Shown piece by piece: positions 1-34,730 of a DNA stretch of 37,376 nucleotides (positions within the stretch are counted from its first letter, which is position 1; each line of letters begins with the position of its first letter). Made by a program: the position numbers and the translations under genes. Location of the stretch: positions 1 through 37,376 of the forward strand of contig CANLZY010000042.1 in the NCBI GenBank assembly GCA_947495685.1. The letters are read 5' to 3'. A model generated the notes under the pieces. The model was not told where the DNA came from. It saw only the letters and a program-made list of their open reading frames with translations, and made no database searches. Origin of the DNA: an uncultured Tropicimonas sp. (GTDB lineage Bacteria > Pseudomonadota > Alphaproteobacteria > Rhodobacterales > Rhodobacteraceae).

Positions 1-385
1 TTGATGCGCCTGATCGACACGCAGTTCCTTGAAACCCCGTTCTATGGCGTTCGGCAAATGACATGGCACCTGCGCAATGAGGAGCAATTGGTGAATGAGA
101 AACCTATCCGCCGTTTGATGCGCTTGATGGGGCTCATGCCGATCCGCTGCCCGGCAGTGTCTTGCGCAGCAATGCACGAGAGGGAACCAGAAGCCCAACA
201 CCCGCAAGCCCGCCAAGGGGCACAGGATTTACCCCTGTTTGCTGCGCGGCTTGCAGGTGGTTCGACCGAACCAGGTCTGGGCGGCGGACATCACCTACCT
301 GCCAATGCGACGCGGGTTCCTCTACCTGGTCGCCATCATGGACTGGTACACCCGCAAGGTCTTGGCCTGGCGCATTTCCAACACG
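1..385 (+). pseudogene. IS3-family transposase OrfB remnant, frameshifted and truncated
   Basis: This is part of an integrase-like (rve, DDE) transposase of the IS3 family. It starts before the window edge. Frame 1 gives the OrfB N-terminal part with the phrases YGVRQM and RRLMRLMGLMPI. After an insertion at about 145-185 the protein resumes in frame 2 with the expected continuation QKPNT, LLRGL, RPNQVWAADITYLPMRRGF and AIMDWYTRKVLAWRISNT. The first catalytic Asp is in ADITYLP. Homology stops at RISNT (385), so the second Asp and the Glu are missing and no active enzyme can be made. The frame change is explained by the hairpin insertion at 151-184 (net about +40 bases, taking I-Y-Q-K as the native reading from family knowledge). 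Immediately downstream lie another hairpin copy and an IS5-family remnant in the opposite direction. Confidence 0.88.
151..184 (+). repeat. Short hairpin insertion element, copy 1 (in IS3 orfB)
   Basis: A 34-base unit starting with the box CCGGCAG (151-157) and ending with GAGAGGG (178-184). Between them lies an imperfect hairpin: GTG (157-159) pairs with CAC (175-177), TTGC (162-165) with GCAA (169-172), loop GCA. It interrupts the IS3 orfB reading frame between the codons for MPI and QKPNT and shifts the frame by +1. It closely resembles the copies at 508-541, 388-420 and 13428-13457. No coding role is apparent. Confidence 0.8.
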
Positions 386-387
386 CC

Positions 388-420
388 CCCTCTCGGCGAC
401 GCTTTGCATCGCCTGCCGGG
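388..420 (-). repeat. Short hairpin insertion element, copy 2 (IS3/IS5 junction)
   Basis: Read on the minus strand, the unit has the box CCGGCAG, then stem GGCGATGC, loop AAA, stem GCGTCGCC (one T-G mismatch), then GAGAGGG. On the plus strand it runs from CCCTCTC at 388 to CCGGG at 420. It sits exactly where IS3 homology ends (385) and just before IS5 homology begins (about 436). It may therefore mark the recombination point that joined the two remnants. Confidence 0.78.
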
Positions 421-435
421 CAGTGATTGGCATCG

Positions 436-1005
436 GCCCTGCGCCCCGTGCGTGCGGGCCTGCCATCCGCCACCGCCGAGGACCTTGATCCCGGTCCTGT
501 CCGTTGACCGGCAGGGTCTTGCAATGCAATGCCCGGGAGGGGGCCAGCAAGTTCAGTGGGCCATCTGCGCCGCGATAGGGAATCTGGACGGCCCGGGTCT
601 TCTGCCTCCTGCATAGGGTGGAAAAATCCGGAACGGGCCAGTCCAGCCCCGCAAGCCGGAGCAGACTGGCGACCATCCCGGCGGTCTGGCGCAGGGGGAG
701 CTTCAGGAGACCCTTGATCGAAAGGCAGACTTGGATGGCGGCATCAGAGAAGACCGGTGGCCGTCCGGGGCGCCCCTCTCGCGGCGCCAGCCAAGCCATA
801 TCCTTGTCGACCCAGATCAGCAGCGAACCGCGCTTCTTGAATGACGCCCTCGCCAGTGGGCTCGAACCAATGGCGCCTCAGTGGCTCGATAGCTGGACCC
901 GTTCGTCGTGCGGTAGCGCGCGGCAGGTGGTTTGCTCATGCAGAGCGTCAAACGGCATGGATTCGCAAAGTGACTCCTCTACAGATCGAATTCTGCAACA
1001 ACGCC
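436..1005 (-). pseudogene. IS5-family transposase remnant
   Basis: The N-terminal part of an IS5-family DDE transposase, read on the minus strand. From about 830 it reads KKRGSLLIW, DKDMAWLAPREGRPGRPPVF, LPLRQTAGMVASLLRLAGLD and VPDFSTLCRRQK, then PYRGADGPLNLL. There the frame is broken by the hairpin insertion at 508-541. It resumes in another frame with the expected TGIKVLGGGGWQARTHGAQG, so the catalytic first Asp of the VDSTG motif lies right at the insertion. Everything after about 436 is missing. Upstream an ATG at about 959 opens MPFDALHEQTT, which runs into a stop (codon after SSH) before the conserved part. The segment around 965-1005 (TGCAGAATTCGATCTG on the minus strand) looks like the outer end of the element, from memory of similar ISs. 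The gene is dead. Confidence 0.82.
508..541 (+). repeat. Short hairpin insertion element, copy 3 (in the IS5 transposase)
   Basis: A 34-base unit with box CCGGCAG (508-514) and 3' box GGGAGGG (535-541). The hairpin pairs GGG with CCC and TTGCA with TGCAA around a single A. It has the same length as the 151-184 copy, and differences in the stem are compensated: GTG/CAC there is GGG/CCC here. It splits the IS5 transposase between NLL and the TGIKVLG motif (net about +40 bases). It lies antisense to the transposase gene, whereas copy 1 lies sense to its host gene. Confidence 0.8.
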
Positions 1006-1347
1006 GTTGGCCTGTCTCATCGTCGAAGAGGCAGATGTGAACTCTCCGCCCCGTTGTTTGGCCCGCGACCGGTTTTCTGTCGGGCGCAAGCGCCAGTCGC
1101 CTGGAAAGCTGCGCCGTAGGAGCGAAGCAAATCAGTGACGATGGCCTCCGGTGAACTTCAGTGCCGCATGGCTTTCTTCGTGGGTTTCAAACCGCTATCT
1201 GCTCGTTCGGAATGTTTGCGAAGCTCTGAGGAACTTCGCCTTCGGGATTGGTCGCACGTCAAAGGTGGTGTCGTTCACCATTCATCGGGACGGACCACTC
1301 TTCTCCGCCAACCGGAGTCCCTCATCCGACTCGCACAACATGATCCG
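1006..1347. other. Stretch without a supported gene
   Basis: No reading frame here has family features. The open frames on the plus strand read through the antisense of the neighbouring DUF1127 and anSME genes and look like shadows. The base composition is more even than in the IS remnants. I see no RNA gene or repeat. Confidence 0.5.
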
Positions 1348-7518: not shown

Positions 7519-8940
7519 ATGAGAGACCAGAACAAACCCAATATCTTGTGGATTTGCACCGACCAGCAACGCTTTGATACGCTTCGGAGCAACGGCAACG
7601 ACTATATCGACACACCAAATCTGGACAGGCTGCTGAAGACTGGGGTCTCCTTCGATCGGACCTATTGTCAGGCCCCGGTCTGCACTCCGAGCAGGGCCAG
7701 CTTTCTGACTGGTCGCTACCCCCGCACGACGGGCACGACCCGAAATGGCAACGACTACTTCCCGGACGACGAGATACTTGTTCCGCATATCCTTTCCCAG
7801 CATGGCTACACATGTGGGTTGATCGGGAAACTTCATCTTTCAGCGGCGGATGGACGGACGGAAGTCCTCCCCAAACATCATGGCTATGACATGGTCAAAT
7901 GGAGCCATGGGCCAAGGGACGGGTGGGGCGATGACAATGCCTATCAGGTCTGGTTGAAATCGCAGGGCAAATCCTGGGATGTCGATTACCACGGCGAGGA
8001 AGGCGGCATCGAGTCGAAGTACCACCAGACGACTTGGTGTGCGAATGAAGCAATCGACTTCATGGCGACGCATAACGACACCCCCTGGATGCTCAGCATC
8101 AACATCTTCGACCCGCATCATCCCTTTGATCCGCCAAAAGAATTCAAGGAGAAATACCCCGCCGAGAAGATACCTCTGCCCAAATGGAGAGAGGGGGAGT
8201 TGGCCAACAAGCCCTTGGTCCAGCAGGACGATTATGAAAACGGCGGGCAAAGTGGGCTCGGCCCGAGCTGCAAGACGCTGAGTGATCTGGAAATCCGGGA
8301 ATATGTTTCGGACTACTACGCGATGATCGACCAGATCGACAAACAGGTCGGACGGATCATCGACTATCTCGACGGAAGCGGGCTGCGTGAGAATACGATC
8401 GTCATCTTCCACAGTGATCACGGCGAAATGCTCGGGGATCACGGACAGATCCTGAAGGGCGGTCATTTCTATGAGGAACTGGTGCATGTTCCACTGATCT
8501 TCTCCTGCCCGGCGCGCCTGAAAGAAGATCTTCGCAGCCAGGCTCTGGTTGAACTGGTGGATCTTGCGCCCACGATCCTGGATCTTGCCGGCGTCGAGGT
8601 TCCGGATCGAATGCAGGGTAGCAGTCTGGCCGCGATCCTTGAGGGCAAGGCCGAACCGGATCAGCACAAGGACTCGGTCTATTGCGAGTACTACAACTCC
8701 CTGCCAGCCGCCCATAAGGGTGTGTTCGCGACCATGTATTTCGACGGACGCTACAAGCTGAACGTCTTCCATGGGCAGGAAATCGGCGAGTTGTACGACC
8801 TCGAAACGGATCCGGACGAGTTCGACAACAAATGGTCCGATCCGGATTTCCAATCGATCAAATGCGACCTGATCCTCGCGAACTTCGCGCAGAGCGTTGC
8901 GACCGTGGATCCGGTTCCGGGAATCGTCGGCAATTTCTAG
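7519..8940 (+). CDS. Cytoplasmic-type sulfatase (alkaline-phosphatase superfamily), first copy
   Basis: 473 residues, hydrolysing a sulfate ester. The N-terminus, NKPNILWICTDQQRFD, places the metal ligands D15 and Q16. The activation motif is C-T-P-S-R with C55 as the residue to be converted to formylglycine and R59 stabilising it. GKLH gives K104 and H106, and SDHGEMLGDHG gives D300 and H301 of the second metal-binding part. There is no signal peptide, so it works in the cytoplasm, unlike the arylsulfatase at 31194-32786. The start has GAGGG about 10 bases upstream. It lies between tctC and a second sulfatase in the same direction, fitting cleavage of an imported sulfated acid. It needs a formylglycine-generating enzyme; the anSME of this locus is broken. 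Confidence 0.92.
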   Translation: MRDQNKPNILWICTDQQRFDTLRSNGNDYIDTPNLDRLLKTGVSFDRTYCQAPVCTPSRASFLTGRYPRTTGTTRNGNDYFPDDEILVPHILSQHGYTCGLIGKLHLSAADGRTEVLPKHHGYDMVKWSHGPRDGWGDDNAYQVWLKSQGKSWDVDYHGEEGGIESKYHQTTWCANEAIDFMATHNDTPWMLSINIFDPHHPFDPPKEFKEKYPAEKIPLPKWREGELANKPLVQQDDYENGGQSGLGPSCKTLSDLEIREYVSDYYAMIDQIDKQVGRIIDYLDGSGLRENTIVIFHSDHGEMLGDHGQILKGGHFYEELVHVPLIFSCPARLKEDLRSQALVELVDLAPTILDLAGVEVPDRMQGSSLAAILEGKAEPDQHKDSVYCEYYNSLPAAHKGVFATMYFDGRYKLNVFHGQEIGELYDLETDPDEFDNKWSDPDFQSIKCDLILANFAQSVATVDPVPGIVGNF

Positions 8941-8996
8941 TTTCCAACCGCGACATCGCGCGGCCCTCCGGCGGCGCGGTAAGAGGATACCCTATC

Positions 8997-10508
8997 ATGA
9001 ACGACCGCCCCAACATCGTCTTCATCATCACCGACCAGCAGCGATACGACACGATCGCCGCATTGGGCTTCGATCACATGATCACGCCCAATCTCGACAG
9101 GCTCGCCGGAAACGGCGTGGCCTTCGAGAAGATGTACATCCCGGCGCCCTCCTGCGCGCCCTCCCGCGCCGCACTCTTTTCGGCGACCTATCCGCATACC
9201 AATGGTGTGTTCCGCAATGACGAGGAATGGTCTTATTGCTGGGTGAAGGATCTCGCCGAGGCCGGCTATCACACCGTGAATATCGGCAAGATGCATACCT
9301 GGCCGGTGGAAGGAGCCTTCGGCTTCCACGAGCGGCATGTCACCGAGAACAAGGATCGCGACCATGACGATCTGCCCTTCTTTCTCGACAACTGGGACAA
9401 GGGCTATTTCGTGCGCGGCAAGGAGAAACCCTCCCGCGTCACCCAACGCAAACGCCAGGGCTACGAGGACTTGCTCGGCGCCTGGGTCTGGGAAGACGAG
9501 GCGATCCTGCACCCGGATGTCTTCGTGCCGCAGATGGCGAAATGGTGGCTGGAGCGCTACCCGGGCGACGAGCCCTTCTTCCTGCAGATTGGCATTCCGG
9601 GGCCGCACCCGCCCTATGACCCGACACAGGAATACCTGGACATGTACCAGGACCGCGACCTGCCCGAGCCGATCCCGGCCGACGATATCGACGAACAGCC
9701 CTCCGCCTATCAAAAGCTTCGCCAGCATCATCTGGACGACGATGCCGACGGGATCGTCCACCTGAAGAACCCCACGCCCGAACAGGCAAAGCGGCAGCGG
9801 CTGCACTATTATGCCAATGTATCGCTGATCGATGACCAGGTCGGCCAGATCCTCGACACGCTGGATCGGCGCGGTATCCTGGAAGATACGGTGGTGATCT
9901 TCACCTCCGATCATGGCGACAGCCTGACCGATCACGGCCATTCGCAGAAATGGAACATGTACGAGAGCACCGTGCACGTGCCCGCCATCGTCGCCTGGCC
10001 CGGCCAGATCGAGGGCGGCAAGCGGGTGGCGGAGTTGGTCAACCTGTTCGATTTCGGCCCAACGATCCTGGAACTCGCCGGGGTGCCGGTGCCAGACTGG
10101 ATGGAGGCTCAGACCCTTCTGCCACTTATGAAGGGCGAGGCGCAGGAGCGTCCGCGCGTCTTCTGCGAGCATTCCAACGACGCGCTGCTGGAAGGCACCC
10201 GCATGGTCACGATGGTGCGCGAGGGCGACCTAAAGCTGGTGCATTTCGTGGACAGCGAGGAGGGCCAGCTTTTCAACCTCGCCGCCGACCCGCAGGAGCT
10301 GGACAACCTCTGGGACGATCCCGCTCATTCGGAAACGAAGCGCCGCCTGATCGACGAGATCCTGAAATGGCGCACCGAAAGCGGCATCCGGGCACAGGGC
10401 TACCCGCTCGCCTGCATCCGCGGCGCGCTGTCGATGATGTCTCCTCCCGGACGCCCGGCCCGCGGTCAGCACCGCACGGGCTCGCGCGGACCGCGTCCCT
10501 GGTGTTAG
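8997..10508 (+). CDS. Cytoplasmic-type sulfatase, second copy
   Basis: 503 residues from the ATG at 8997, which has AAGAGGA just upstream; an in-frame start at 8832 would overlap the previous gene and adds no conserved sequence. RPNIVFIITDQQRYD carries D13 and Q14. The activation motif is C-A-P-S-R with C53 and R57. GKMH gives K98 and H100, and SDHGDSLTDHG gives D305 and H306. There is no signal peptide. The protein is only distantly alike to the sulfatase 56 bases upstream (same fold and motifs, different middle part), so the pair probably acts on different positions or substrates. The last 25 residues (after ALSMM) are proline-, arginine- and glycine-rich and look unlike a sulfatase end, so the natural C-terminus may have been altered. 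Confidence 0.9.
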   Translation: MNDRPNIVFIITDQQRYDTIAALGFDHMITPNLDRLAGNGVAFEKMYIPAPSCAPSRAALFSATYPHTNGVFRNDEEWSYCWVKDLAEAGYHTVNIGKMHTWPVEGAFGFHERHVTENKDRDHDDLPFFLDNWDKGYFVRGKEKPSRVTQRKRQGYEDLLGAWVWEDEAILHPDVFVPQMAKWWLERYPGDEPFFLQIGIPGPHPPYDPTQEYLDMYQDRDLPEPIPADDIDEQPSAYQKLRQHHLDDDADGIVHLKNPTPEQAKRQRLHYYANVSLIDDQVGQILDTLDRRGILEDTVVIFTSDHGDSLTDHGHSQKWNMYESTVHVPAIVAWPGQIEGGKRVAELVNLFDFGPTILELAGVPVPDWMEAQTLLPLMKGEAQERPRVFCEHSNDALLEGTRMVTMVREGDLKLVHFVDSEEGQLFNLAADPQELDNLWDDPAHSETKRRLIDEILKWRTESGIRAQGYPLACIRGALSMMSPPGRPARGQHRTGSRGPRPWC

Positions 10509-10757: not shown

Positions 10758-12563
10758 ATGCCGAACAAACACCAACTGATCGCGAATTTCAGCCCGCGCC
10801 GCCCATGGTTCAGCCTGGTCAACCGCGAGACCATGCGTGCCGATGCCCTCGCCGGGTTGACCAATGCAGCAATTGTCCTGCCGCAAGGTGTGGCATTTGC
10901 CGTCATTGCTGGCCTGCCTCCGGAATACGGGCTCTATACCGCCATGATCACGCCGGTGATCGCTGCGATATGGGGGACATCCATGATCATGGTGTCGGGC
11001 CCGACGACAGCGATCTCGGCGGTCATGTTCGCGACGCTCGCCGAACTGGCCCCCCCCGGCACGCCTGTCTACATCCAATTCGCATTGACCCTGACAATCA
11101 TTGCCGGGCTGTTTCAGTTGGTGGCCGGCGTCTTCCGGCTGGGCGGATTGATCTCGTTCATCTCGCATTCCGTCATGGTAGGGTTCACCGCGGCGGCTGC
11201 GCTCCTGATCGGGGCGTCCCAGCTCGGCGGGGCACTCGGCATAAGCGTCGAAAGCGGCGGAGGCGTCATTGAACGCATCGCGCGTGTCGTCGAGCATTGG
11301 GAAGGCTTCCATCCGCTCGCATTGCTTCTCGCCGCGTCCTCACTGGCAACCATCGTGATCACCCAGAAACTCAGCCGGCAGATCCCGGCCTATCTGATGG
11401 CGCTGTTGGTCGGCGTGGCGGTCGGGGAAATCACCGGTGCCCGCGACGCCGGCATCGAGATGTTCGAGAAGCTTCCCTCGCTGGTTCCCAGCTTTGGCGC
11501 GCCGTCCGTGGCATTGTCGGATCTGCCCAACCTCCTTCCCGGCGCGGTGTCAGTCGGCTTCGTGGGGCTTCTTGAAGCGATCAGCATCGGTCGGGCCTTC
11601 GCCATGCGACGGCGCGAGCGATACGATGCCAATCAGGAAATCATCGGGCAGGGCCTCTCCAACGTGGTCGCAGGGTTCTTCCAGGCCTATGCCGGCTCCG
11701 GATCGTTCACCCGATCGGCAATGAACGCCGAATCCGGTGCCCGGACACCCCTGTCCGCGGTCTTTGCCGCCGGGTGGCTGCTCGCGCTTTTGGTCGTCGT
11801 GGCGCCGTTCGTCGACCATATTCCGAAGCCGGCAATGGCCGGGATCATCGTTTACGTCGCGTGGCGGCTGATCAGTTTCGGTGAAATTCGCCACATCGTT
11901 CGCAGCAGCCGTAGTGAAACGCTGATTCTCATCCTGACCTTTCTCGCCGGCACGACGACCGAGCTTGAAAACGCGATCTTCGTCGGTGTCATCGCCTCGC
12001 TGGCCGTGTTCCTCTACCGTAGCTCTCACCCGCACATAGCCGTGCTCGCCCCGATCGCGCGTCACGGGCATCGGCAATTGCGGGGTGCCTTGTTCCACGA
12101 ACTCAAGCAATGCCCACAAGTGTGCATCCTCAGGCTGGATGGACCACTGTTTTTCGGTTCGGTCGATCACGTGGAGAGCGAATTCCGCCGGTTCGAGACA
12201 TTGTTTCCGAACCAGCGCGTCAAGATTCTCGTGCTGAAGGGACTGGGGAAAATAGATCTTTCCGGGGTCGGCCTTCTAGCCGAGGAAATCGCCAAGGCCC
12301 GGAAAGCCGGCGGCGACTATCACCTTGTCGTTCCATTCAAAGAGACGGCGGATGCACTGGACCGGATGAACCTTTTCGAGGCCTTTGAAAAGACCAATCT
12401 GCACCCGAACAAGAGTGAGGCGATCCAGGCGGCGACGGATCAAGTCGACGACGAAGTCTGTCGAAACTGCACGATCCGGGCTTTCATCGAATGCGGTGGA
12501 AAACCGGCGCCATCGGGCGTAGCGCCGAAGAAGGACGCACCAGTTCGTGAGGGGTCGTGGTGA
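10758..12563 (+). CDS. SulP-family anion (sulfate) transporter with STAS domain
   Basis: About 601 residues. The membrane part begins MRADALAGLTNAAIVLPQGVAFAVIAGLPPEYGLYTAMITP, the SulP signature, with about 12-14 segments, and includes ISFISHSVMVGFTAAAALLIG and GFFQAYAGSGSFTRSAMN. The C-terminal STAS domain (about residues 445-560) reads VCILRLDGPLFFGSVDHVE and KILVLKGLGKIDLSGVGLL. SulP proteins move sulfate, bicarbonate or dicarboxylates. Next to two cytoplasmic sulfatases it may dispose of, or exchange, the sulfate they release. A cysteine-containing tail (VCRNCTIRAFIECGG) follows the STAS domain; its meaning is unclear. The start at 10758 has a weak ribosome site and a GTG at 10716 is possible. 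An IS21-family element lies about 130 bases downstream. Confidence 0.88.
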   Translation: MPNKHQLIANFSPRRPWFSLVNRETMRADALAGLTNAAIVLPQGVAFAVIAGLPPEYGLYTAMITPVIAAIWGTSMIMVSGPTTAISAVMFATLAELAPPGTPVYIQFALTLTIIAGLFQLVAGVFRLGGLISFISHSVMVGFTAAAALLIGASQLGGALGISVESGGGVIERIARVVEHWEGFHPLALLLAASSLATIVITQKLSRQIPAYLMALLVGVAVGEITGARDAGIEMFEKLPSLVPSFGAPSVALSDLPNLLPGAVSVGFVGLLEAISIGRAFAMRRRERYDANQEIIGQGLSNVVAGFFQAYAGSGSFTRSAMNAESGARTPLSAVFAAGWLLALLVVVAPFVDHIPKPAMAGIIVYVAWRLISFGEIRHIVRSSRSETLILILTFLAGTTTELENAIFVGVIASLAVFLYRSSHPHIAVLAPIARHGHRQLRGALFHELKQCPQVCILRLDGPLFFGSVDHVESEFRRFETLFPNQRVKILVLKGLGKIDLSGVGLLAEEIAKARKAGGDYHLVVPFKETADALDRMNLFEAFEKTNLHPNKSEAIQAATDQVDDEVCRNCTIRAFIECGGKPAPSGVAPKKDAPVREGSW

Positions 12564-13184
12564 TCGTGTGATTTCGAACACGAGCGAAGATGGTGTCAGC
12601 CAAGTTCGACCGACTTGATTGATGGCGTTGATGCCCCCTTTGACGACACAAACAAAACCAATTGGCACTGTTCCAATTGCGATCATCGGGCTGATGTCAA
12701 TCCCGGAGTAAAATGGGTTAGTGGACCGGTGGAATAGTCCCCAACGGCTGGTGTCTGGCAGGCGCCTTGGCGCGTGTGCCCCCACATGGCTGACGCGCGT
12801 CAAGGGGCACTGGCCGAAGGCCAGTTTGGGTTGTCTGGGTGTTCGAGAGAGCAGGTTTTGGCTTTGCGGCTCTGGCGGAGCCGGTAGCTTTCGCCGTTCA
12901 TTTCCAGGATGTGGACGTGGTGGGTCAGACGGTCGAGTATGGCGCCAGTTAGGCGCTCCGACCCGAAGACCTCGGTCCATTCGTCGAAGGGCAGGTTCGA
13001 GGTGATGACGATCGAGCCGCGCTCGTGGCGCTGCGAGATGATCTCGAAGAGCAATTCGGCACCGGTCTTTGATAGCGGCACGAAGCCGAGTTCGTCGATG
13101 ATCAGCAGGTCCTGACTGGCGAGGGTCTTCTGAAGGCGCTGGAGCCGGCGCTCGTCGACCGCCTCGACGAGTTCGTGGAGTGAG

Positions 13185-13212
13185 CCAATGGAACGCCATT
13201 GGTCCGAGAGAC
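13185..13212 (+). repeat. Hairpin insertion in istB, related architecture (copy 4, weaker)
   Basis: A perfect hairpin, CCAATGG (13185-13191), loop AACG, CCATTGG (13196-13202), followed by TCCGAGAGAC. The 3' box resembles the CGAGAG box of the better copies, but the CCGGCAG box is absent. It adds about 39 bases in frame to istB between the FTTAAA and HELVEA motifs, judged against the family sequence. Confidence 0.55.
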
Positions 13213-13427
13213 ATTGGCGAACGGCCGCGGCGGTGGTGAACCGGACCTTCAGGCCTTTCTGACAGGCCGCCAGCCCGAGACCCAGGGCAATGTGGGGCTT
13301 GCCGGTGCCGCTCGGTCCCAGTGCGATGACGTTCTCACGGCGATCGACGAACTCGCAGCGGGCGAGTTCCATGGTCAGGATCTTGTTCAGTGACGCAATG
13401 GCCTTGAAGTCGAAGCTGTCCGGTTGC

Positions 13428-13457
13428 CCGGCAGGGCATGCCCGCATGCCCGAGAGG
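13428..13457 (+). repeat. Short hairpin insertion element, copy 5 (in istB)
   Basis: The box CCGGCAG (13428-13434) leads into a perfect 8-base stem, GGGCATGC (13434-13441) and GCATGCCC (13444-13451) with a 2-base loop, followed by GAGAGG. The boxes match the copies at 151, 388 and 508, about 13 kb away in a different IS family, while the stem sequence is different. It shifts the istB frame between the codons for ATKS and DSFDFKAI (net about +37 bases). It lies antisense to istB. Confidence 0.8.
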
Positions 13458-13675
13458 AGGGCTTTTGGTGGCCGGGAACTTCGCAGCCTTGATGCGGCGT
13501 TCGATCATCCGCCGCTCCCGCTCGATCAGCTCCAGTTCGCAGAGCCGCAGCAGATATTGCGCGTGATCCTTGCCCTCGGCCGCACATTGCCGGGCCAGCT
13601 TGGCGTCTTTGCTGTTGAAGGTCGGTAGGCGGGGCTTCTTGAGATGGTGCTGGAGCAGCACCTGCGGGGTCTCCG

Positions 13676-15219
13676 TCATGCAACCGGCCCCGGCATCAAG
13701 CTCATGTAGCTGGCGGGCTTCGTGGTCTCGACCCGGGCGCGGGGCAGGCAGGGATAGATGTCCAGATCGAGCCGCGGTGGGCGCCGTTCGACCCGGCACA
13801 GGACAAGGTGCTTGACCGCGTCGTAGCCGATCGCCCCGAGAACCAGCGCCTCGCGCACGGCACCGTGGACATGATCCATCTCGAAGGTCTCCAGCAGCCG
13901 CAGGACCTGCACATATTCCCGCTTGCCCTTCTTTCCCATTCGCGCCTCGAGCAGCCGATGCAGCGTGGCGAACGCGTCCGGCAGGTCCCAACCCTGTAGA
14001 GGTGCAGCCTGATCCAGAGCACCTACCTTCTGCTCCAGAAGCGGCAGGAAGTGCATCGGATCGAACACCATATCGGCCTTCTCACAGGATCGGCGGTGCC
14101 GTGCGATTACCTCGGCGCCACAGCCGATGACCACCTCATGGACATAGCCACGAACCTGCACCTCGTGGTGAGCGTAGGCCACCGGAACCGAGTAATCGTT
14201 GTTGCGATAGCGCACCATGGAGATCGACGTGGCCCGTGTGCTGACCTTTTCCCAGGCGTCATAGGGCGTGGGCGGCAACACCATCAGCGCGTCCAGATCC
14301 CGCATCAGGCGCTCGCCGATCGGCTCGCTGTGGCCGCGCACGATATCGTCCTGGCGTTTCAGGCACTGTTTTTCCAGCCAGGCGTTAAGGTCATCGAAGC
14401 TGCCAAACCGGGGAGCGGGCACAAGGAAATTCCGCCGCCCACAGCCGATCACGCCCTCCACGTTGCCCTTGTCATTCCCCTTGCCCGGCCGACCGAACCT
14501 GTCATCAAACAGGTAATGCGACTGCAACTCGGCAAAGGTTCTGGTCCGGTTCCGTTTGCCGTCGCCGCAGATCTTCGCCACCGCGAGCGTGGTATTGTCA
14601 TACAGAATCGACAGGGGCACGCCGCCAAAGAACCCGAAGGCGTCATTGTGCCCATCGCAAAAAGGCTTCCGTTGTCTCGGCAGGGTAGGCTTTGATGAAG
14701 AAGGCGTCCGAGTGCGGCAGAGCCATCGCGGAATAGTGCAGCTTGCATTCAACGCCGCCGATCACGCCAAGCGCCTCGCCGAAATCCACCTGTGCGTGAC
14801 CCGGCGCATGCGACAGCGGCACGAACACCTCGCGGCTCCGGCGTTTCTTCTCCCGCACGTAGTCGGTCACGATGGTGATCCCGCCGGTGAACCCGTGCTG
14901 GTCCCGCAGCCGTTCAAAGACCCGCTTAGCGGTATGCCGTTGCTTCTTCAGGCGGCCTTTGTCGTCCTCCAGGATCTGGTCGATGACCGGAACGAAGGGG
15001 GCGAGCTTCGGTCGAGCCGGCGGTTTCGACCGTCGATAGCCGGGTGGCACCGAGTGCTTCAGGATCTTTGCAACCGTTCTCGGGCGAAACGGTCCCCCGG
15101 ACCGTTTCTTCTTCCCTCGAACTCCGATCGATCGCGAACACCCGAGCCGCTTCGCTCTTGCTCATCCCTTCGACATGGCACGCCCGGCGCACCCGGTTGC
15201 AAAGTTCCACAGAATACAT
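13676..15219 (-). pseudogene. istA: IstA-like transposase of the IS21 element, frameshifted twice
   Basis: IstA is the DDE transposase of IS21. It starts MYSVELCNRVRRACHVEGMSKSEAARVFAIDR (helix-turn-helix) at 15219. A hairpin insertion at 15078-15123 then shifts the frame, which resumes TVAKILKHSVPPGYRRSKP. It reads on through REVFVPLSHAPGHAQVDFGEA (first catalytic Asp region) to YPAETTEAF. There an extra T in a T-run near 14664 shifts the frame again. The rest, FCDGHNDAFGFFGGVPLSILYDNTTLAV, GRPGKGNDKGNVEG and the C-terminal part to SYMSLMPGPVA, is intact in the third frame. The T-run shift could be a sequencing error, but the 46-base interruption is not. The stop overlaps the istB start. Confidence 0.88.
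15078..15123 (-). repeat. Hairpin insertion in istA, related architecture (copy 6, weaker)
   Basis: Read with istA on the minus strand, it has a purine-rich lead (GTTCGAGGGAAGAA), then a perfect 10-base stem GAAACGGTCC, loop GGG, GGACCGTTTC, then GCCCGAGA. The segment after the stem resembles the 3' box CCGAGAGG of the main copies; the CCGGCAG box is absent. It separates the conserved codons for AIDR from TVAKILKHSV (net about +43 bases) and breaks the frame. Confidence 0.58.
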
Positions 15220-29394: not shown

Positions 29395-31191
29395 TCAGTT
29401 CGCCGGACTGTACCAGATCGGTGAGCCCCAGGCGCGTTCCTGAATGGTGGCCGGGACATCCTCCAACAGCGGCAGGCCCTCGCGCACAGCGTCATAGGTG
29501 GACCACCGTGGCGTCGGAATCTCCAGGGCGCGAGCGTAGTAGAAGGCGTTGGATTGTGGGTCGAAATCCGCGTCGGTCCACGCTCCGATCAGCATCGGCG
29601 CGCCGATGTCGTTGGTGAACTTCGCGGTCGCAAGGTCCACGGTGTTGCCAATTGCGGGCAATTTCCCAGTCGCGGTGTCGATCTCTCGATCCCCGGACCA
29701 GGCAACATCGATGATCCGTTCGTTGAGGTCGCCGTTCGCGTCGGCCCAGCCCTTGACGATCTGCACCCGGTCGAGGTTGGCGCCATCCGGATCCTTCTCG
29801 GCCATCACGGTGAAGGTTGGCGGTGTCGGATTCGCCGGCAGATCGGATCCCATGTGAGCGCCGAGGAGATAGCCCTGTTCGACCATTTCGACGGGATCCG
29901 TCGTCGCCGCCAATTCCACACCGCCGAACATGCGCACCTTGAGCCGCGGGCCGGAGGTGGCGAAGGTCTCGCGGCGCTTCATGGCGTCCCAGATCGCGGC
30001 ACGGGTGTTCTCGGTGGCCCAGACACCCCCAAGGGACCCGATGGAGAGGTCCTTGCCGTCGATCCAGCCCAGAACATCGCCAGTCCGGCGTCGTTCCACG
30101 GTGCCATCCTCGGGACCATGCGCCCCGTCGAACTGGTCTTCGGCCACCTGCGACATCAGCCCGTTATGGTTGTCGGTTCCCCCCATGAAACCCAGCTTGA
30201 ACGGGTTCACGCCAAGTGCCTGTTCCGCCTGAAGGCCCGCCTTCAGCCCGCCACGCACGAAGTCGCGTTGGTGAAAGATGCGGCCGGAGTTCTTCTGGAT
30301 CGAGTCCGCGTTTTCGAAATTGGAGAACTCGTCCGCGGCCCAGAACTTGCGGTGTACCTCCGAGTTTCCCTTGACCTGCATCATCTCCACCAGTGGCTCG
30401 AAGTGTTGGCGTGTCCGGGCATATGCAAGGTCGATCGGCTCGCCAAAGCTGTCGGTATCGGGGAACATCCGCCCTTTGGAGGCATTGGAATTGTGCGGAA
30501 TCGCCAGCAGGTGACGGCCATCGGCCTCCTGTCCGTGCATCCAATCCCAGAGCCGCTCTTCCTGGTTGATCTCGATATAGCTCGGGACCGTGTCGGGCAC
30601 GTTGTGGTCACGAAAGATTACATTTCGGTGCAGGTTCGCGCCATTGGGCGCACCCGACCATTCGAACCCGATCAGCGCGGTGAAATTGCCGGGGTCGTTG
30701 TGCTCCTCGGCAGCGTCGATGATGATCTGCCAGGCGCTCTTGGTCGTTGCGGGACCGGCATAGAACGACGGGTGCTGCGGGGTTGTGCTGCGGTTGGACG
30801 AAACCACGTATTTGAAGAACCAGCTCTGGCGGTCTTCGATGTCGGTCAGCGTGCGCAGGGTCTCCAGATCTTCGTTGTCATGCCCGGGCGCGTCGTCGTA
30901 CATCGTCGAATACATCTCGCCGATGTACTCGGAGTGATCGGTCACGGTGGCGAAATCCAGCGGTCGACGGTGCTGCATCACGGTGCCGTCGGGCAGAGTG
31001 ACCGGAGCCCCCTTTGCAAAGCTCAGCGCATCGGACGGCATCAGCCGTGTGCCGCCGATATAGGCGTCCAGCGACAGCGCGGTGTGCATATGGGTTTCAC
31101 CAAAATAGGCGTTGCGCAACGGGTTGGGATCGGCCGAGGCAAGCGGGGCAATCCAGATCAGGGCAATGGCGGTGGCGGAAAGCTTGTTCAT
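29395..31191 (-). CDS. Exported DUF3604 protein, first copy
   Basis: 598 residues with a signal peptide (MNKLSATAIALIWIAPLASA). DUF3604 proteins have a PHP-like metal-dependent hydrolase look. YFGETHMHTALS gives H34 and H36, ATVTDHSEY gives D85 and H86, and later IPHNSNASKGRMF and GFMGGTDNHNG add further metal-binding residues. The end, IPTPRWSTYDAVREG followed by PIWYSPAN, closely parallels the copy at 32808-34730. The reaction is not known. It starts two bases after the arylsulfatase stop, so the two are translated together. It is the last gene of the operon. Confidence 0.88.
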   Translation of the reverse strand: MNKLSATAIALIWIAPLASADPNPLRNAYFGETHMHTALSLDAYIGGTRLMPSDALSFAKGAPVTLPDGTVMQHRRPLDFATVTDHSEYIGEMYSTMYDDAPGHDNEDLETLRTLTDIEDRQSWFFKYVVSSNRSTTPQHPSFYAGPATTKSAWQIIIDAAEEHNDPGNFTALIGFEWSGAPNGANLHRNVIFRDHNVPDTVPSYIEINQEERLWDWMHGQEADGRHLLAIPHNSNASKGRMFPDTDSFGEPIDLAYARTRQHFEPLVEMMQVKGNSEVHRKFWAADEFSNFENADSIQKNSGRIFHQRDFVRGGLKAGLQAEQALGVNPFKLGFMGGTDNHNGLMSQVAEDQFDGAHGPEDGTVERRRTGDVLGWIDGKDLSIGSLGGVWATENTRAAIWDAMKRRETFATSGPRLKVRMFGGVELAATTDPVEMVEQGYLLGAHMGSDLPANPTPPTFTVMAEKDPDGANLDRVQIVKGWADANGDLNERIIDVAWSGDREIDTATGKLPAIGNTVDLATAKFTNDIGAPMLIGAWTDADFDPQSNAFYYARALEIPTPRWSTYDAVREGLPLLEDVPATIQERAWGSPIWYSPAN

Positions 31192-31193
31192 GA

Positions 31194-32786
31194 TCAGAGT
31201 CCCAGATCCTTTGGCGGAAACGCCTTGAATGTTGCAGCGTGGGCTTTGAGTTCGGCGCCCAGAGAGGCCGTCCAGGCGTTCATGCGATGACCGACGGGGT
31301 ATTCTTCCTTCGGATCAATGTAGAGATTGAACAGCCATGGCGCGAGTCCCGTAGGGACGACGGTGGCCATGTCGATGTAGAGGAACTTTTCCTGCGCCAG
31401 CGAGACCAGCAGGTGGGCCTTGTATTCGCGCATGCGCATCGCGGCGAGTTGCGCGCCCAGCCAGTTGTAAACCTGCTCACGCTTGCTTTCGCCATCGTCC
31501 ATCAACAGGAACGAGGATTGGTCGATCCCGTCGAAATAGCTGGTGTCCGGCAGAACATCGGGTGTTACACCAGCCAGCGCCAGAGACGTATTGAACAGGT
31601 CCATCAGATCGAAAAGCCCGTCAGACACACGGCCCGGTGCGATCATGCCTTTCCAATAGGCGATGCCTGGAACCCGGACGCCGCCTTCCCAAGTCGTGCC
31701 CTTGGCGCCGCGAAACGGCGTGTAACCGCTGTCGGGCCAGCTATCCATCTGGGGGCCGTTGTCAGAGGTGACAAAGACAAAGGTATTTTCCAGTTCGCCC
31801 ACCGCGTCCAACTTGGCCACGATGTCGCCGATATAGGCGTCCACCTCGACCATGTTGTCCCGATAGGGGAATTTCGAAGCGCTGGTGCCCTTGAACTCCT
31901 CTGACGGGAAATTGTCGGCGTGCACCTTCATGAAGGAGTGGCTAATAAGGAACGGCTTGTCTCCCGTCGCCAGTTCCTCGATCCGCGTCAACGTGTAGTC
32001 GCGAAGCTTTCGATCGCCCTCGGCCATGTCCTGCAAGCTGTCGATGGTCTCCACCGTTTCGGTGGTGCCGTCCTTCAGCCCATAGATCAGGTCGTTGTTG
32101 GAGCCGATCGCATGATAGCGTTCCAGCTTGTCCGGATCGAGTGCCAGGTCGGGAAACCGCATCTGGTAGACGTCCTGAGTGTATTCCTTTTGCGCCTTGT
32201 AGAACCCGTAGAATTCGTCAAACCCGACGTCGTGCGGGCGCATGCCTTCGGTTTCGCCGATGTGCCACTTGCCGACCAGCATGGTGTGATACCCGGCGTC
32301 CGACAGCAGGCCGGCCACGCTCAACTCGCCCTCCCACGGGTTAACCGTGATGGTGTCGCCAGCCAGGATCGGCCGGATCAAGCCGGTGCGCGCGGGCAGG
32401 CGTCCGGTATAGATCGCCGCTCGGGTCGGCGTGCAGGTGTATTGCGAATAGGTCGACGTCAGCTTCAACCCCTCGGCGGCAAGCTGGTCCATGTTGGGCG
32501 TTGCCGCGCCGATCATCCCGCCGCCGCCAAAGGCGCCAGGATCGCCGTAGCCCATGTCATCGACGATGAAGATCACGATGTTCGGTCGCTGGCCGGTCGC
32601 ATCGACGAACGCGTCGAGCTTTTCTGCGGCGGCCGCATCCTGCTCGGGCCGCGGAATCGCGGGTTGCATGTTGACGGCTGTCGCGACGGCCCGGCTCAGC
32701 GTCGAGGCCGGTTTGGGAAGGTCCTGGGCGCCAACGGCGGAGGCCATGGTCAGGAGGCTGGCCGCAACGGCGGTGGAGGTCTTCAT
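31194..32786 (-). CDS. Exported arylsulfatase
   Basis: 530 residues from the ATG at 32786 (AAGGA nine bases upstream); a GTG six codons earlier is less likely. The signal peptide is MKTSTAVAASLLTMASAVGA, so it acts in the periplasm. Metal ligands D76 and D77 are in VDDMGYGD. The activation motif is C-T-P-T-R with C118 and R122, the Thr replacing the usual Ser. GKWH gives K173 and H175, and TSDNGPQ carries the late Asp-Asn pair. It differs from the two cytoplasmic sulfatases in location and sequence. It is sandwiched between two DUF3604 genes with gaps of 21 and 2 bases. It needs formylglycine formation before export. Confidence 0.92.
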   Translation of the reverse strand: MKTSTAVAASLLTMASAVGAQDLPKPASTLSRAVATAVNMQPAIPRPEQDAAAAEKLDAFVDATGQRPNIVIFIVDDMGYGDPGAFGGGGMIGAATPNMDQLAAEGLKLTSTYSQYTCTPTRAAIYTGRLPARTGLIRPILAGDTITVNPWEGELSVAGLLSDAGYHTMLVGKWHIGETEGMRPHDVGFDEFYGFYKAQKEYTQDVYQMRFPDLALDPDKLERYHAIGSNNDLIYGLKDGTTETVETIDSLQDMAEGDRKLRDYTLTRIEELATGDKPFLISHSFMKVHADNFPSEEFKGTSASKFPYRDNMVEVDAYIGDIVAKLDAVGELENTFVFVTSDNGPQMDSWPDSGYTPFRGAKGTTWEGGVRVPGIAYWKGMIAPGRVSDGLFDLMDLFNTSLALAGVTPDVLPDTSYFDGIDQSSFLLMDDGESKREQVYNWLGAQLAAMRMREYKAHLLVSLAQEKFLYIDMATVVPTGLAPWLFNLYIDPKEEYPVGHRMNAWTASLGAELKAHAATFKAFPPKDLGL

Positions 32787-32807
32787 GAGGTCACATCCTT
32801 TCACGGC

Positions 32808-34730
32808 TCACATGTCCGGTGCGTACCAGATCGGCGAGGAATAGGCCCGCTCCTGGACGATCATCGGGACATCATTCGGCAGGTCGAGGTTGAATTTCAC
32901 CGCGTCATAGGCGGTCCATCGCGGTGTCGGGATCTCGATCACCCGGGCATAGTAGAAGGCCTTGAGCGCTGGGTCGAAGTCGGGGTCCTGCCAGACCGTG
33001 CCCAGCTCCGAGGCGCCGATGGTGTTGGTCCAGGCCGGAAGGCTCAGGTCTACCGTGTTTCCGACGGCGGGCAGCGTGCCATCCGCGCCGGGGAGGCGCT
33101 CGTCCGACCAGGCAACATCGTAGACCTTTTCGCGGGGCGTTCCGTCGGCGTCGAGCCAACCCTTGACGATCTGCACCCGGTCCAGGTTGGCGCCCTGCGG
33201 GTCGCGCAACGCAAAGACAAGGAACGACGGCGCGCCCTTGCCGGGGTGCAGGTCCGCGCCCATGGGCACGCCCTTGGTGTAGCCCACCAGCGCCAGATCC
33301 CGTCGGTTGGCATCGGCCGCGTCGAACTCCCATCCGCCAAAAAAGCGCAGACGGATACGCGTGCCGGTCGTTGCATAGACCTCGCGCCGTTCCATCGCGT
33401 CGAAGATCGCGCCACGGCTGTTCTGCGTCGCCCAGACGGCGGTCAGGCCAGAGGTGATGTAGCTCCAGGAAGAGTATTCGACGCCAAGTTCCTCGTTCCG
33501 TTTCGACAGGTGGTTGGCGCGGTGTTCGTTCGGCTCATAGGCGGTGAACTTGCCGAAGAAGTTGTCGTTGTCCGGGGTGGACAGACCGGTATGGGCATCA
33601 CCCGCGCCCACCAGGCCGAACTTGAACGGGTTGGTGCCCAGGTCGGTTTCCAGTTGCAGCCCGCGTTGAAGGCCTGACCGCACGTACTCGCCGGGCAGCA
33701 TCTCGGGCGTCTTGGCCTCGGAGATATCCAGGTTGCCCCAGTCCCAGGTCTCGAAATCGGCAAATTCGTCATCTGGCGACAGCAGCGGATGCGCTTCGCC
33801 GTCGCCCTTGATCTGGGTTGCCTCGTACAGGCGTTCCCATGTGTTGCGTTGCTCGACGTACTGCGCGTCAAAGGCCTCGCCATCGGCAAAGTCGTCCTGC
33901 AGCGCGAACATCATGCCGTTGCTGAGGTTGCCGTTGTGGGGGATCGCAGTCACATCCCCTCCGGTATTGGCTTCGTAGGCCTCCAGCCATTTCCACAGGT
34001 CTTTCGGGTCGGGGCTGCCGATGGGCGGAGTGGTGGTATAGGGAACGATCTGCCCGGCGCGCTCTGGCCCGTCGCGGAAAATCACGTTGCGGTGCAGGTT
34101 GTTGCCCCTGACCAGCGACGTCCACTCGTAGGCGATAAAGGTGGTAAACCGTCCGGGGTCGTTGAACTCTTCGGCCGCCTGCATGATGTCGTCCCAGACC
34201 CGCTTGTAGGCCGGGTTCCCGGGTTGATAATTCAGCGCCTCCGACAACTCGCCCTGCGAAAACTGGCGGACCAGTTCCTGGGCGGCCGTCTGCGCATCCT
34301 GCCCACCGGCCTTGAACGCCTCGTGGAACATCTTGCCATCAGGGTCTGCCATGACATTCGGCGTGCCGGCGATCATGTCGGTGATCGCTCCCATGCCGTC
34401 CGAATGGTCGGTGATCATGAAAAAATCGAAGGGCGTGCGCAGCTTTACCGGCTGCCCGGTGTTGGAGGTGATCTGTTCGCCACGTGCGAACCGGTAGGCA
34501 TCGCGTGGCAACAGGGTCGTGCCACCGCCGCCCGCATCGCCGGACAGGCCGGTGTGGACATGGGTGTCGCCGAAAAAGACGTCCTCGGGGAAGGCCCGGT
34601 CAGCATAAGGCGAATAGGGGCGTTCGGGAAAGACGGCGGGCAGCCCGTCCATGTCGATTGCATCCTGTGCGACCGAAAGGCTGGCCGCCGATGCGAAGGC
34701 AACAGTCAGAAAGAGTGTCGATTTGCGCAT
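32808..34730 (-). CDS. Exported DUF3604 protein, second copy
   Basis: 640 residues with a signal peptide (MRKSTLFLTVAFASAASLSVAQ). FFGDTHVHTGLSGDAGGGGT gives H57 and H59, FFMITDHSD gives D108 and H109, and AIPHNGNLSNGMMF and GLVGAGDAHTGLS correspond to the later metal-site motifs. It ends IPTPRWTAYDAVKF, VQERAYSSPIWYAPDM. It is clearly paralogous to the 29395 copy, with the sulfatase between them. It is the third gene of the operon, 30 bases after the unknown exported protein. Confidence 0.88.
   Translation of the reverse strand: MRKSTLFLTVAFASAASLSVAQDAIDMDGLPAVFPERPYSPYADRAFPEDVFFGDTHVHTGLSGDAGGGGTTLLPRDAYRFARGEQITSNTGQPVKLRTPFDFFMITDHSDGMGAITDMIAGTPNVMADPDGKMFHEAFKAGGQDAQTAAQELVRQFSQGELSEALNYQPGNPAYKRVWDDIMQAAEEFNDPGRFTTFIAYEWTSLVRGNNLHRNVIFRDGPERAGQIVPYTTTPPIGSPDPKDLWKWLEAYEANTGGDVTAIPHNGNLSNGMMFALQDDFADGEAFDAQYVEQRNTWERLYEATQIKGDGEAHPLLSPDDEFADFETWDWGNLDISEAKTPEMLPGEYVRSGLQRGLQLETDLGTNPFKFGLVGAGDAHTGLSTPDNDNFFGKFTAYEPNEHRANHLSKRNEELGVEYSSWSYITSGLTAVWATQNSRGAIFDAMERREVYATTGTRIRLRFFGGWEFDAADANRRDLALVGYTKGVPMGADLHPGKGAPSFLVFALRDPQGANLDRVQIVKGWLDADGTPREKVYDVAWSDERLPGADGTLPAVGNTVDLSLPAWTNTIGASELGTVWQDPDFDPALKAFYYARVIEIPTPRWTAYDAVKFNLDLPNDVPMIVQERAYSSPIWYAPDM

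What the first reader, a model, noticed from the sequence alone, without database searches (positions are those of the whole stretch)
151..541. Family of short hairpin insertions with fixed flanks and variable stems, found in transposase genes
Copies at 151-184, 388-420 (reverse) and 508-541, with a fourth at 13428-13457, share an identical 7-base box CCGGCAG on one side and a box near CGAGAGGG on the other. Between them is a hairpin whose sequence differs each time but stays paired: GTG/CAC against GGG/CCC in two 34-base copies, a perfect 8-base stem in the istB copy, and a different 8-base stem in the junction copy. Conserved flanks with compensated stems point to selection or a mechanism acting on the folded form, not to chance. 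Two copies interrupt the coding frame of different IS families (IS3, IS5) by about 40 bases each, at codons where the family sequence is well known. No fitting copy was seen outside the IS sequences of this window. It could be a tiny mobile element moved in trans, for example by a single-strand (Y1/REP-type) transposase, or a mechanism that marks or disables ISs. I know no described element with this form.
Basis: partly seen in the sequence, partly recalled or inferred. Interest (0 to 1): 0.88.

Follow-up and report, generated by a model that had tools for sequence, protein, structure and literature searches.

The report
Tiny mobile hairpins riding transposase genes
The four hairpins are copies of an apparently undescribed, roughly 40-base mobile element, common in Rhodobacterales bacteria, that keeps its fold while its stem sequence changes, often sits inside the genes of other jumping DNA, and is multiplied when those jump.

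Summary
Confirmed and widened. The four window copies belong to a family of about 38-46 bp elements, C-RYTGCCCGGCAG-[stem-loop]-YGAGAGGG-R. A covariance model gives 60 matches in this genome and matches in 128 of 292 genomes of the order. Pairing is kept by double changes: 67 cells against 23 shuffled. Empty sites show true insertion without target duplication; the closest pair, 98.8% identical, differs there by exactly 42 bp. Insertion favours a site near RTC. Copies are often in transposase genes: Pfam supports this at 16 of 30 own loci scanned against 0 of 10 hand-picked control sites. ISs multiplied after receiving inserts: one IS3 with five inserts has five near-identical copies, yet its transposase is also truncated, so it probably moved in trans. 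A resident Y1/RAYT transposase is not required: 38 of 394 genomes have one, and 5 of 8 genomes with ten or more copies lack it. Translational bypass is unlikely: both orientations occur. It works like a REP but is no member of the GTAG or CGTC families. The mobilising enzyme is unknown.

The parts
145..185 (+). Copy 1, 41 bp, inside an IS3-family orfB remnant; stem-loop TGTCTTGCGCAGCAATGCA
   Evidence: Model match 146-185; absent from IS3 homologues L173, L174 and L175, which read GATC-T-ACCAG there
387..425 (-). Copy 2, 39 bp, stem-loop GCGATGCAAAGCGTCGC; its right end is the joint between IS5 and IS3 remnants
   Evidence: Model match 387-424; the same copy lies inside IS5 in L258
502..542 (+). 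Copy 3, 41 bp, inside an IS5-family transposase remnant; right box decayed to CGGGAGGG
   Evidence: Model match 503-542; empty in L176 and L178 (GTCC-ACCAG), filled at the same site in L023, L011 and L177
13422..13459 (+). Copy 4, about 38 bp, inside the istB gene of an IS21-type element; stem GGCATGC/GCATGCC; left end has one extra G
   Evidence: Model match 13423-13459; empty in L179 and L180, both annotated istB
1..386 (+). IS3-family orfB remnant that hosts copy 1
   Evidence: 71-75% identical to the 15 listed plasmid hits, most annotated IS3 transposase
386..1009 (-). IS5-family remnant that hosts copies 2 and 3
   Evidence: 95.5% identical to L258 over 626 bp; homologues annotated IS5
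12800..13680 (-). istB (IS21 helper ATPase) broken by copy 4
   Evidence: Open frames; 70-71% identical to annotated istB
13676..15050 (-). istA (IS21 transposase) remnant in two frames next to istB
   Evidence: Open frames 13676-14752 and 14643-15050; named by position: istA is annotated beside the istB homologues

Best explanation
A family of very small non-autonomous palindromic mobile elements, REP-like in build and, so far as seen, almost confined to Rhodobacterales. Shown: near-fixed boxes, a stem of free sequence that stays paired, insertion after a short site near RTC without target duplication, many copies per genome, frequent residence in transposase genes and other dispensable DNA, and secondary multiplication as passengers of IS copies. 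Inferred: broken IS copies are moved in trans; the element is handled as a folded single strand by an enzyme acting in trans that reads the two boxes and the hairpin shape; some events lose or fuse the DNA next to an element. Not known: the enzyme, and why IS genes are hit so often.
For: Family: 60 own matches at E<=0.01; 128 of 292 genomes and 62 of 113 genera of the order at E<=1e-4; strict pattern in 168 of 394 family genomes, its backward control in 33 (hand count), so some single hits are chance. Fold: 94.1% of cells paired against 67.9% shuffled; 67 double-change cells against 23.1 shuffled (0 of 500) and at most 22 in slid versions; 8 of 9 pairs change on both sides, a count that 23 of 500 shuffles also reach. 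Insertion: empty homologues for IS3, IS5, IS21 and IS30. In the IS30 case the empty relative is 98.8% identical over the matched pieces and exactly 42 bp are added, nothing lost, nothing duplicated. Target: bases -4 to -1 before RYTG are A 40, T 39, C 51 and C 51 of 64; the last C counts as element in the IS30 case. Hosts: transposase-type Pfam domains (HTH_21 and HTH_Tnp counted in) at 16 of 30 own loci, one of them under its cut-off, and at 16 of 30 loci elsewhere, plus 2 integrases; 0 of 10 control sites. Passenger spread: G425 and G569.
Against: No enzyme was found, so 'mobile' rests on filled and empty sites and copy number, not on observed movement. Joints in the other pairs (relatives about 70-94% identical) show 0-4 changed or lost target bases, so precision is shown in one near-identical pair only. 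Single copies are not unusually stable hairpins. 14 of 30 own loci and 9 of 30 other loci gave no transposase or other hit that settles the host, for the one or two segments scanned, and 3 of 30 lay beside non-mobile genes. The transposase bias may be partly survival.
Confidence: 0.8

Rival explanations
1. A REP family moved by a RAYT or other Y1 (HUH) transposase, as with GTAG REPs.
For: Works alike: hairpin with a bulged T at a fixed place in many stems, a short target 5' of the insertion and no duplication. PMC8266576 (passages read) describes a stem bulge and a 5' tetranucleotide for TnpAREP.
Against: PF01797 in 38 of 394 genomes; 20 of these 38 have strict-pattern hits against 148 of the other 356 (hand count). 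Of the eight genomes with ten or more hits, five have no Y1 match and two of the other three only partial matches. The single Y1 gene of this genome has no element within its 3.35 kb locus. No GTAG tag.
Confidence: 0.12
2. A system that targets transposase genes and disables ISs by inserting hairpins.
For: Strong bias to transposase genes of many families (IS3, IS5, IS6-type, IS21, IS30, IS66, IS110, IS1182, Mutator, by Pfam, annotation or eye), up to five inserts in one IS.
Against: Inserts also in or beside integrase genes, in an RHS-type gene and next to Usp and DUF2853 genes. ISs with inserts multiplied afterwards. Survival only in dispensable DNA explains part of the bias.
Confidence: 0.08
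3. Intron-like or byp-like inserts that are skipped at translation or removed from RNA, leaving the transposase functional.
For: Cutting three inserts from own IS5 copy L258 leaves one open frame with a 268-codon transposase. Synonymous changes are in excess against three copies sharing inserts (dN/dS 0.45, 0.36, 0.23; no stops).
Against: The three comparisons share one sequence, so P 0.0002-0.014 overstates. The multiplied IS3 of G425 has also lost the region after NAAV at its fifth insert, and the IS5 frame of G569 is not restored in the three copies tested. Orientation to the gene is mixed: of 20 sites where I could read the coding strand, 9 run with it and 11 against.
Confidence: 0.04
4. 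A MITE or solo end of a DDE transposon.
For: Small, multi-copy, inverted arms.
Against: Arms vary freely while the outer boxes are not inverted repeats of each other; no target duplication in the 42-bp IS30 case; of 23 left-box sites in fetched regions 21 are the small element, intact or decayed, and none is the end of something larger.
Confidence: 0.05

Closest known systems
CGTC-tagged REPs of alphaproteobacteria (PMC3733652: abstract, passages and two sections read)
   Same: 20-40 bp class, 8-9 bp stems, alphaproteobacterial, reported as lacking a dedicated transposase, some copies inside genes.
   Different: No CGTC tag; long boxes on both sides (CCGGCAG and CGAGAGGG); copies often in transposase genes instead of between genes; stems vary widely within one genome.
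GTAG REPs and REPtrons with RAYT (PMC8266576: passages read)
   Same: Hairpin with a short 5' tag and, in some, a bulged stem.
   Different: Tag is RYTG plus CCGGCAG, not GTAG; no resident RAYT needed; often inside genes.
RUP of Streptococcus pneumoniae (PMC2229807: passages read)
   Same: Small non-autonomous element reported in regions with ISs and inserted into more than six IS families.
   Different: RUP is 107 bp with transposon-type ends, TA targets and a proposed IS630 helper; this element is 38-46 bp, shows no duplication and has no known helper.
IS200/IS605 single-strand transposition (recalled; its guide model is mentioned in PMC8266576)
   Same: Insertion just 3' of a short target, hairpins, no duplication.
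   Different: No transposase gene, one main hairpin, target only a bias, joints not always exact.
Rickettsia palindromic elements (named in PMC3733652 and PMC2229807)
   Same: Palindromes inserted inside protein genes of alphaproteobacteria.
   Different: The RPE described in PMC2229807 is 105-146 bp and, as recalled, kept in frame in working genes; here lengths are mostly not multiples of three and most host genes seen are broken.

Membership tests
GTAG REP / REPtron | GTAG tetranucleotide at the 5' foot | tested here: not met
   Box is RYTGCCCGGCAG in the copies aligned (the search patterns fixed CCGGCAG, so its invariance is partly by selection)
GTAG REP / REPtron | Resident RAYT (Y1) transposase | tested here: not met
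   PF01797 in 38 of 394 genomes; absent from G067, G262, G250, G342, G002, G222, G320
GTAG REP / REPtron | Short palindrome acted on as single strand | tested here: inconclusive
   Palindrome and bulged T shown; single-strand handling not testable
GTAG REP / REPtron | Mainly extragenic | tested here: not met
   Transposase-type Pfam at 16 of 30 own and 16 of 30 other loci
CGTC REP | CGTC tag and AT at the stem foot | tested here: not met
   Alignments
MITE | Terminal inverted repeats with target duplication | tested here: not met
   IS30 pair: 42 bp added, no duplication
IS200/IS605-type element | Fixed short target left at the 5' end, no duplication | tested here: inconclusive
   Left-flank bias near RTC, not a strict site; no duplication
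IS200/IS605-type element | Encodes or is paired with a Y1 transposase | tested here: not met
   No gene in the element
Rfam RNA families | Match at gathering score | tested here: not met
   0 matches in the window
byp-like bypassed insert | Host gene functional despite the insert | tested here: inconclusive
   L258 open after cutting; G425 and G569 copies broken otherwise
Integron attC site | Core sites GTTRRRY/RYYYAAC (recalled) and IntI | not tested
   No integron search was run; the boxes do not resemble the recalled core sites

The most novel reading that the evidence does not exclude
A separate class of shape-read mobile element: a gene-free hairpin of about 40 bases whose stem sequence is free, inserted as single-stranded DNA by a host enzyme of a family not yet tied to transposition. 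Paired double changes could arise because one arm is rebuilt from the other during movement.
Probability: 0.35. Interest if true: 0.8.

Novelty: new variant of a known kind. Interest (0 to 1): 0.6.

Why it matters
It adds a large REP-like family, not described in the papers I could search, in an abundant bacterial order, with filled and empty sites good enough to define its ends. It makes an open question testable: what moves the alphaproteobacterial palindromes that have no dedicated transposase. It also points to a tiny element spreading by riding broken insertion sequences that are themselves moved in trans, and it accounts for some broken transposase genes in Roseobacter genomes.

Tried and rejected
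Y1 transposase near or in the genomes: no clear association. Y2 transposase (PF04986): 7 of 10 element-rich and 0 of 10 element-free genomes, but absent from rich G262, G222 and G320, and perhaps only a mark of IS load. Reverse transcriptase (PF00078): 3 of 10 and 2 of 10. Larger autonomous version: of 23 left-box sites in 20 fetched regions, 21 are the small element, several decayed and one (L265) internally deleted; 2 (L259, L261) are not elements. Phage origin: 27 viral stretches match, 11 passed the pairing filter and I count 10 of these as real. Of those whose titles were shown I find nine convincing by eye: seven Rhodobacterales by name, one Rhodospirillales MAG (L083) and one unplaced alphaproteobacterial MAG (L055); a few others that passed (such as L039, L042, L097) look like chance. 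Translational bypass: considered seriously and mostly rejected (see rivals). Rfam: nothing in the window. Paper searches for a description: (open-licence papers only).

Full report
OBSERVATION. The four hairpins are real: a covariance model built from 30 copies matches the window contig at 146-185, 387-424, 503-542 and 13423-13459 and nowhere else on it, and gives 60 matches in the genome at E<=0.01 (one is partial, several helped to build the model, and its E-values are rough). The plain pattern gives 22 hits and none when read backwards.

ANATOMY. From 75 copies kept for a stem score of at least five (64 distinct left flanks) the element reads C-RYTG-CCCGGCAG-stem-loop-stem-YGAGAGGG-R, about 38 to 46 bp. 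Two subtypes are common: a plain stem of 7-9 pairs, and a stem with one extra base, mostly T, at a fixed place in the 3' arm. All 34 distinct 35-base matches listed for ten genomes, taken without a pairing filter, give 94.1% paired cells (67.9% shuffled), 67 cells with changes on both sides (23.1 shuffled, 0 of 500 reach it) and at most 22 such cells in structures slid by 1-3 columns. Eight of nine pairs change on both sides, but 23 of 500 shuffles also reach eight. The boxes did not vary, yet the pattern that drew the copies fixed them. Selected on the boxes alone, 12 distinct 16-base cores and 11 distinct 20-base cores pair at 95% and 94% against 41% for shuffled cores. One copy alone is not an unusually stable DNA fold.

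INSERTION. IS3: homologues from Roseivivax and Leisingera lack the 41 bp of copy 1. A Leisingera IS3 carries another copy at another site of the same gene. IS5: three own-genome copies and one Leisingera plasmid copy are filled at the same site, while a sister IS copy of the same Leisingera strain is empty there. IS21 istB: two empty homologues. IS30: a 98.8% identical relative, annotated as IS30 transposase, lacks exactly 42 bp; nothing is lost or duplicated. A Phaeobacter IS3 with three inserts aligns with two empty relatives; 0-3 target bases differ at those joints. The left side of the target is biased to about RTC; the right side is not. The target of the IS30 case reads ATT, so the site is a preference.

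WHERE. Transposase-type Pfam domains were found at 16 of 30 own loci (one to four segments per locus; L257 is under its cut-off) and at 16 of 30 loci of other genomes (one segment each, 30 of the 44 copies listed), where 2 more were integrases, 3 other genes (one, AAA_31, under its cut-off) and 9 without hit. Ten own-genome control sites that I picked by hand, not by a random draw, gave 0; 7 of them had some other Pfam domain. Several loci without hit are IS by nucleotide homology or by eye. Three plasmid loci annotated 'hypothetical' or 'none' at the match proved to lie in IS30 and IS3 sequence on both sides and in IS481 sequence on the right side. The gene table of the plasmid collection leaves out pseudogenes, so 'none' there says little.

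AFTER INSERTION. In G425 one IS3 occurs in five copies (L269-L273) that each hold all five inserts and are 99.4-99.8% identical over about 1.28 kb; two truncated copies (L268, L290) hold four, and one fragment (L274) two. A 259-bp probe finds 8 places at 100% (one of them over 150 bp only) and three more at 82, 79 and 76%. Of these three, one carries several inserts, one two inserts plus a stop and a frame change, and one a stop, so I saw no intact relative there. With the inserts cut out, the frame of the five-insert copy ends two residues after NAAV, where the last insert stands at the edge of a deletion; by comparison with the family (recalled) this removes the last catalytic residue. These copies therefore probably moved by a transposase supplied in trans; the helper was not found. 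In G569 an IS5 with three inserts occurs in seven copies 98.9-99.9% identical, and cutting does not restore the frame in the three tested. Own IS5 copy L258 is the opposite case: with three inserts cut it reads through, and dN/dS against copies sharing inserts is 0.23-0.45 (not independent). I read this as recent death or gene exchange, not as proof of function.

JUNCTIONS. In several own loci homology stops within about two bases of an element's end: the window copy at 387 (IS5 on one side, IS3 on the other), L022 against L012, L011 against L024, and L018. Recombination between copies, or deletions started at the hairpin, would both do this.

MOVER. Y1 transposases occur in 38 of 394 genomes and are absent from five of the eight genomes with ten or more strict hits. 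Y2 transposases occur in 7 of 10 rich and 0 of 10 element-free genomes, reverse transcriptases in 3 and 2. G262, G222 and G320 lack all three. So none of these is required as a resident gene, though a lost or visiting enzyme is not excluded. The single-strand handling that I propose is inference from hairpin, target and lack of duplication.

KNOWN KINDS. It works like REPs and IS200/IS605-type hairpins; it is not a member of the GTAG or CGTC REP families by tag, place and transposase. RUP is the best precedent for a small element that collects in ISs (PMC2229807, passages). I found no description of this family in the searches, which cover open-licence papers only and of which I saw listings, apart from the four papers of which I read parts (PMC3733652, PMC12306157, PMC2229807, PMC8266576).

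Noticed in passing
G425:C1 (L268-L273, L290): IS3 copies with five hairpin inserts and a C-terminal deletion multiplied to five near-identical copies plus truncated ones: a natural non-autonomous IS.
   Followed up: partly
L177, L278-L285: The same IS5 with the same three inserts on a Leisingera sp. M527 plasmid and in several copies in the chromosome of G569.
   Followed up: partly
L012/L022, L011/L024, L018:1599, window 386: Homology between IS copies breaks within about two bases of element ends, so elements often mark rearrangement joints.
   Followed up: partly
G067:C53:11428-12021: An element (11873-11907) lies inside a Y2-type transposase match with no stop in its open frame of 426 aa, so at least one insert seems to be kept in frame.
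   Followed up: no
G089:C121 (L186): An element lies about 565 bp from a Y1 transposase gene; the only such neighbourhood I noticed.
   Followed up: no
L170:1073-1107 and 1166-1200: Two shorter copies with 14-base cores and different left boxes (GACG, ACGC) 93 bp apart: possibly a subfamily.
   Followed up: no
L210:1495-1536: In this copy, whose core starts with TG, the 5' box itself folds into a second hairpin (CACTGC/GCAGTG).
   Followed up: no
L163/L030: One copy sits in an RHS-repeat type gene (by eye), a rare non-IS gene host.
   Followed up: no
window 7519-10508 and 29395-34730: Several sulfatase-like and related genes, some beside transporter genes (by eye from the reading frames).
   Followed up: no
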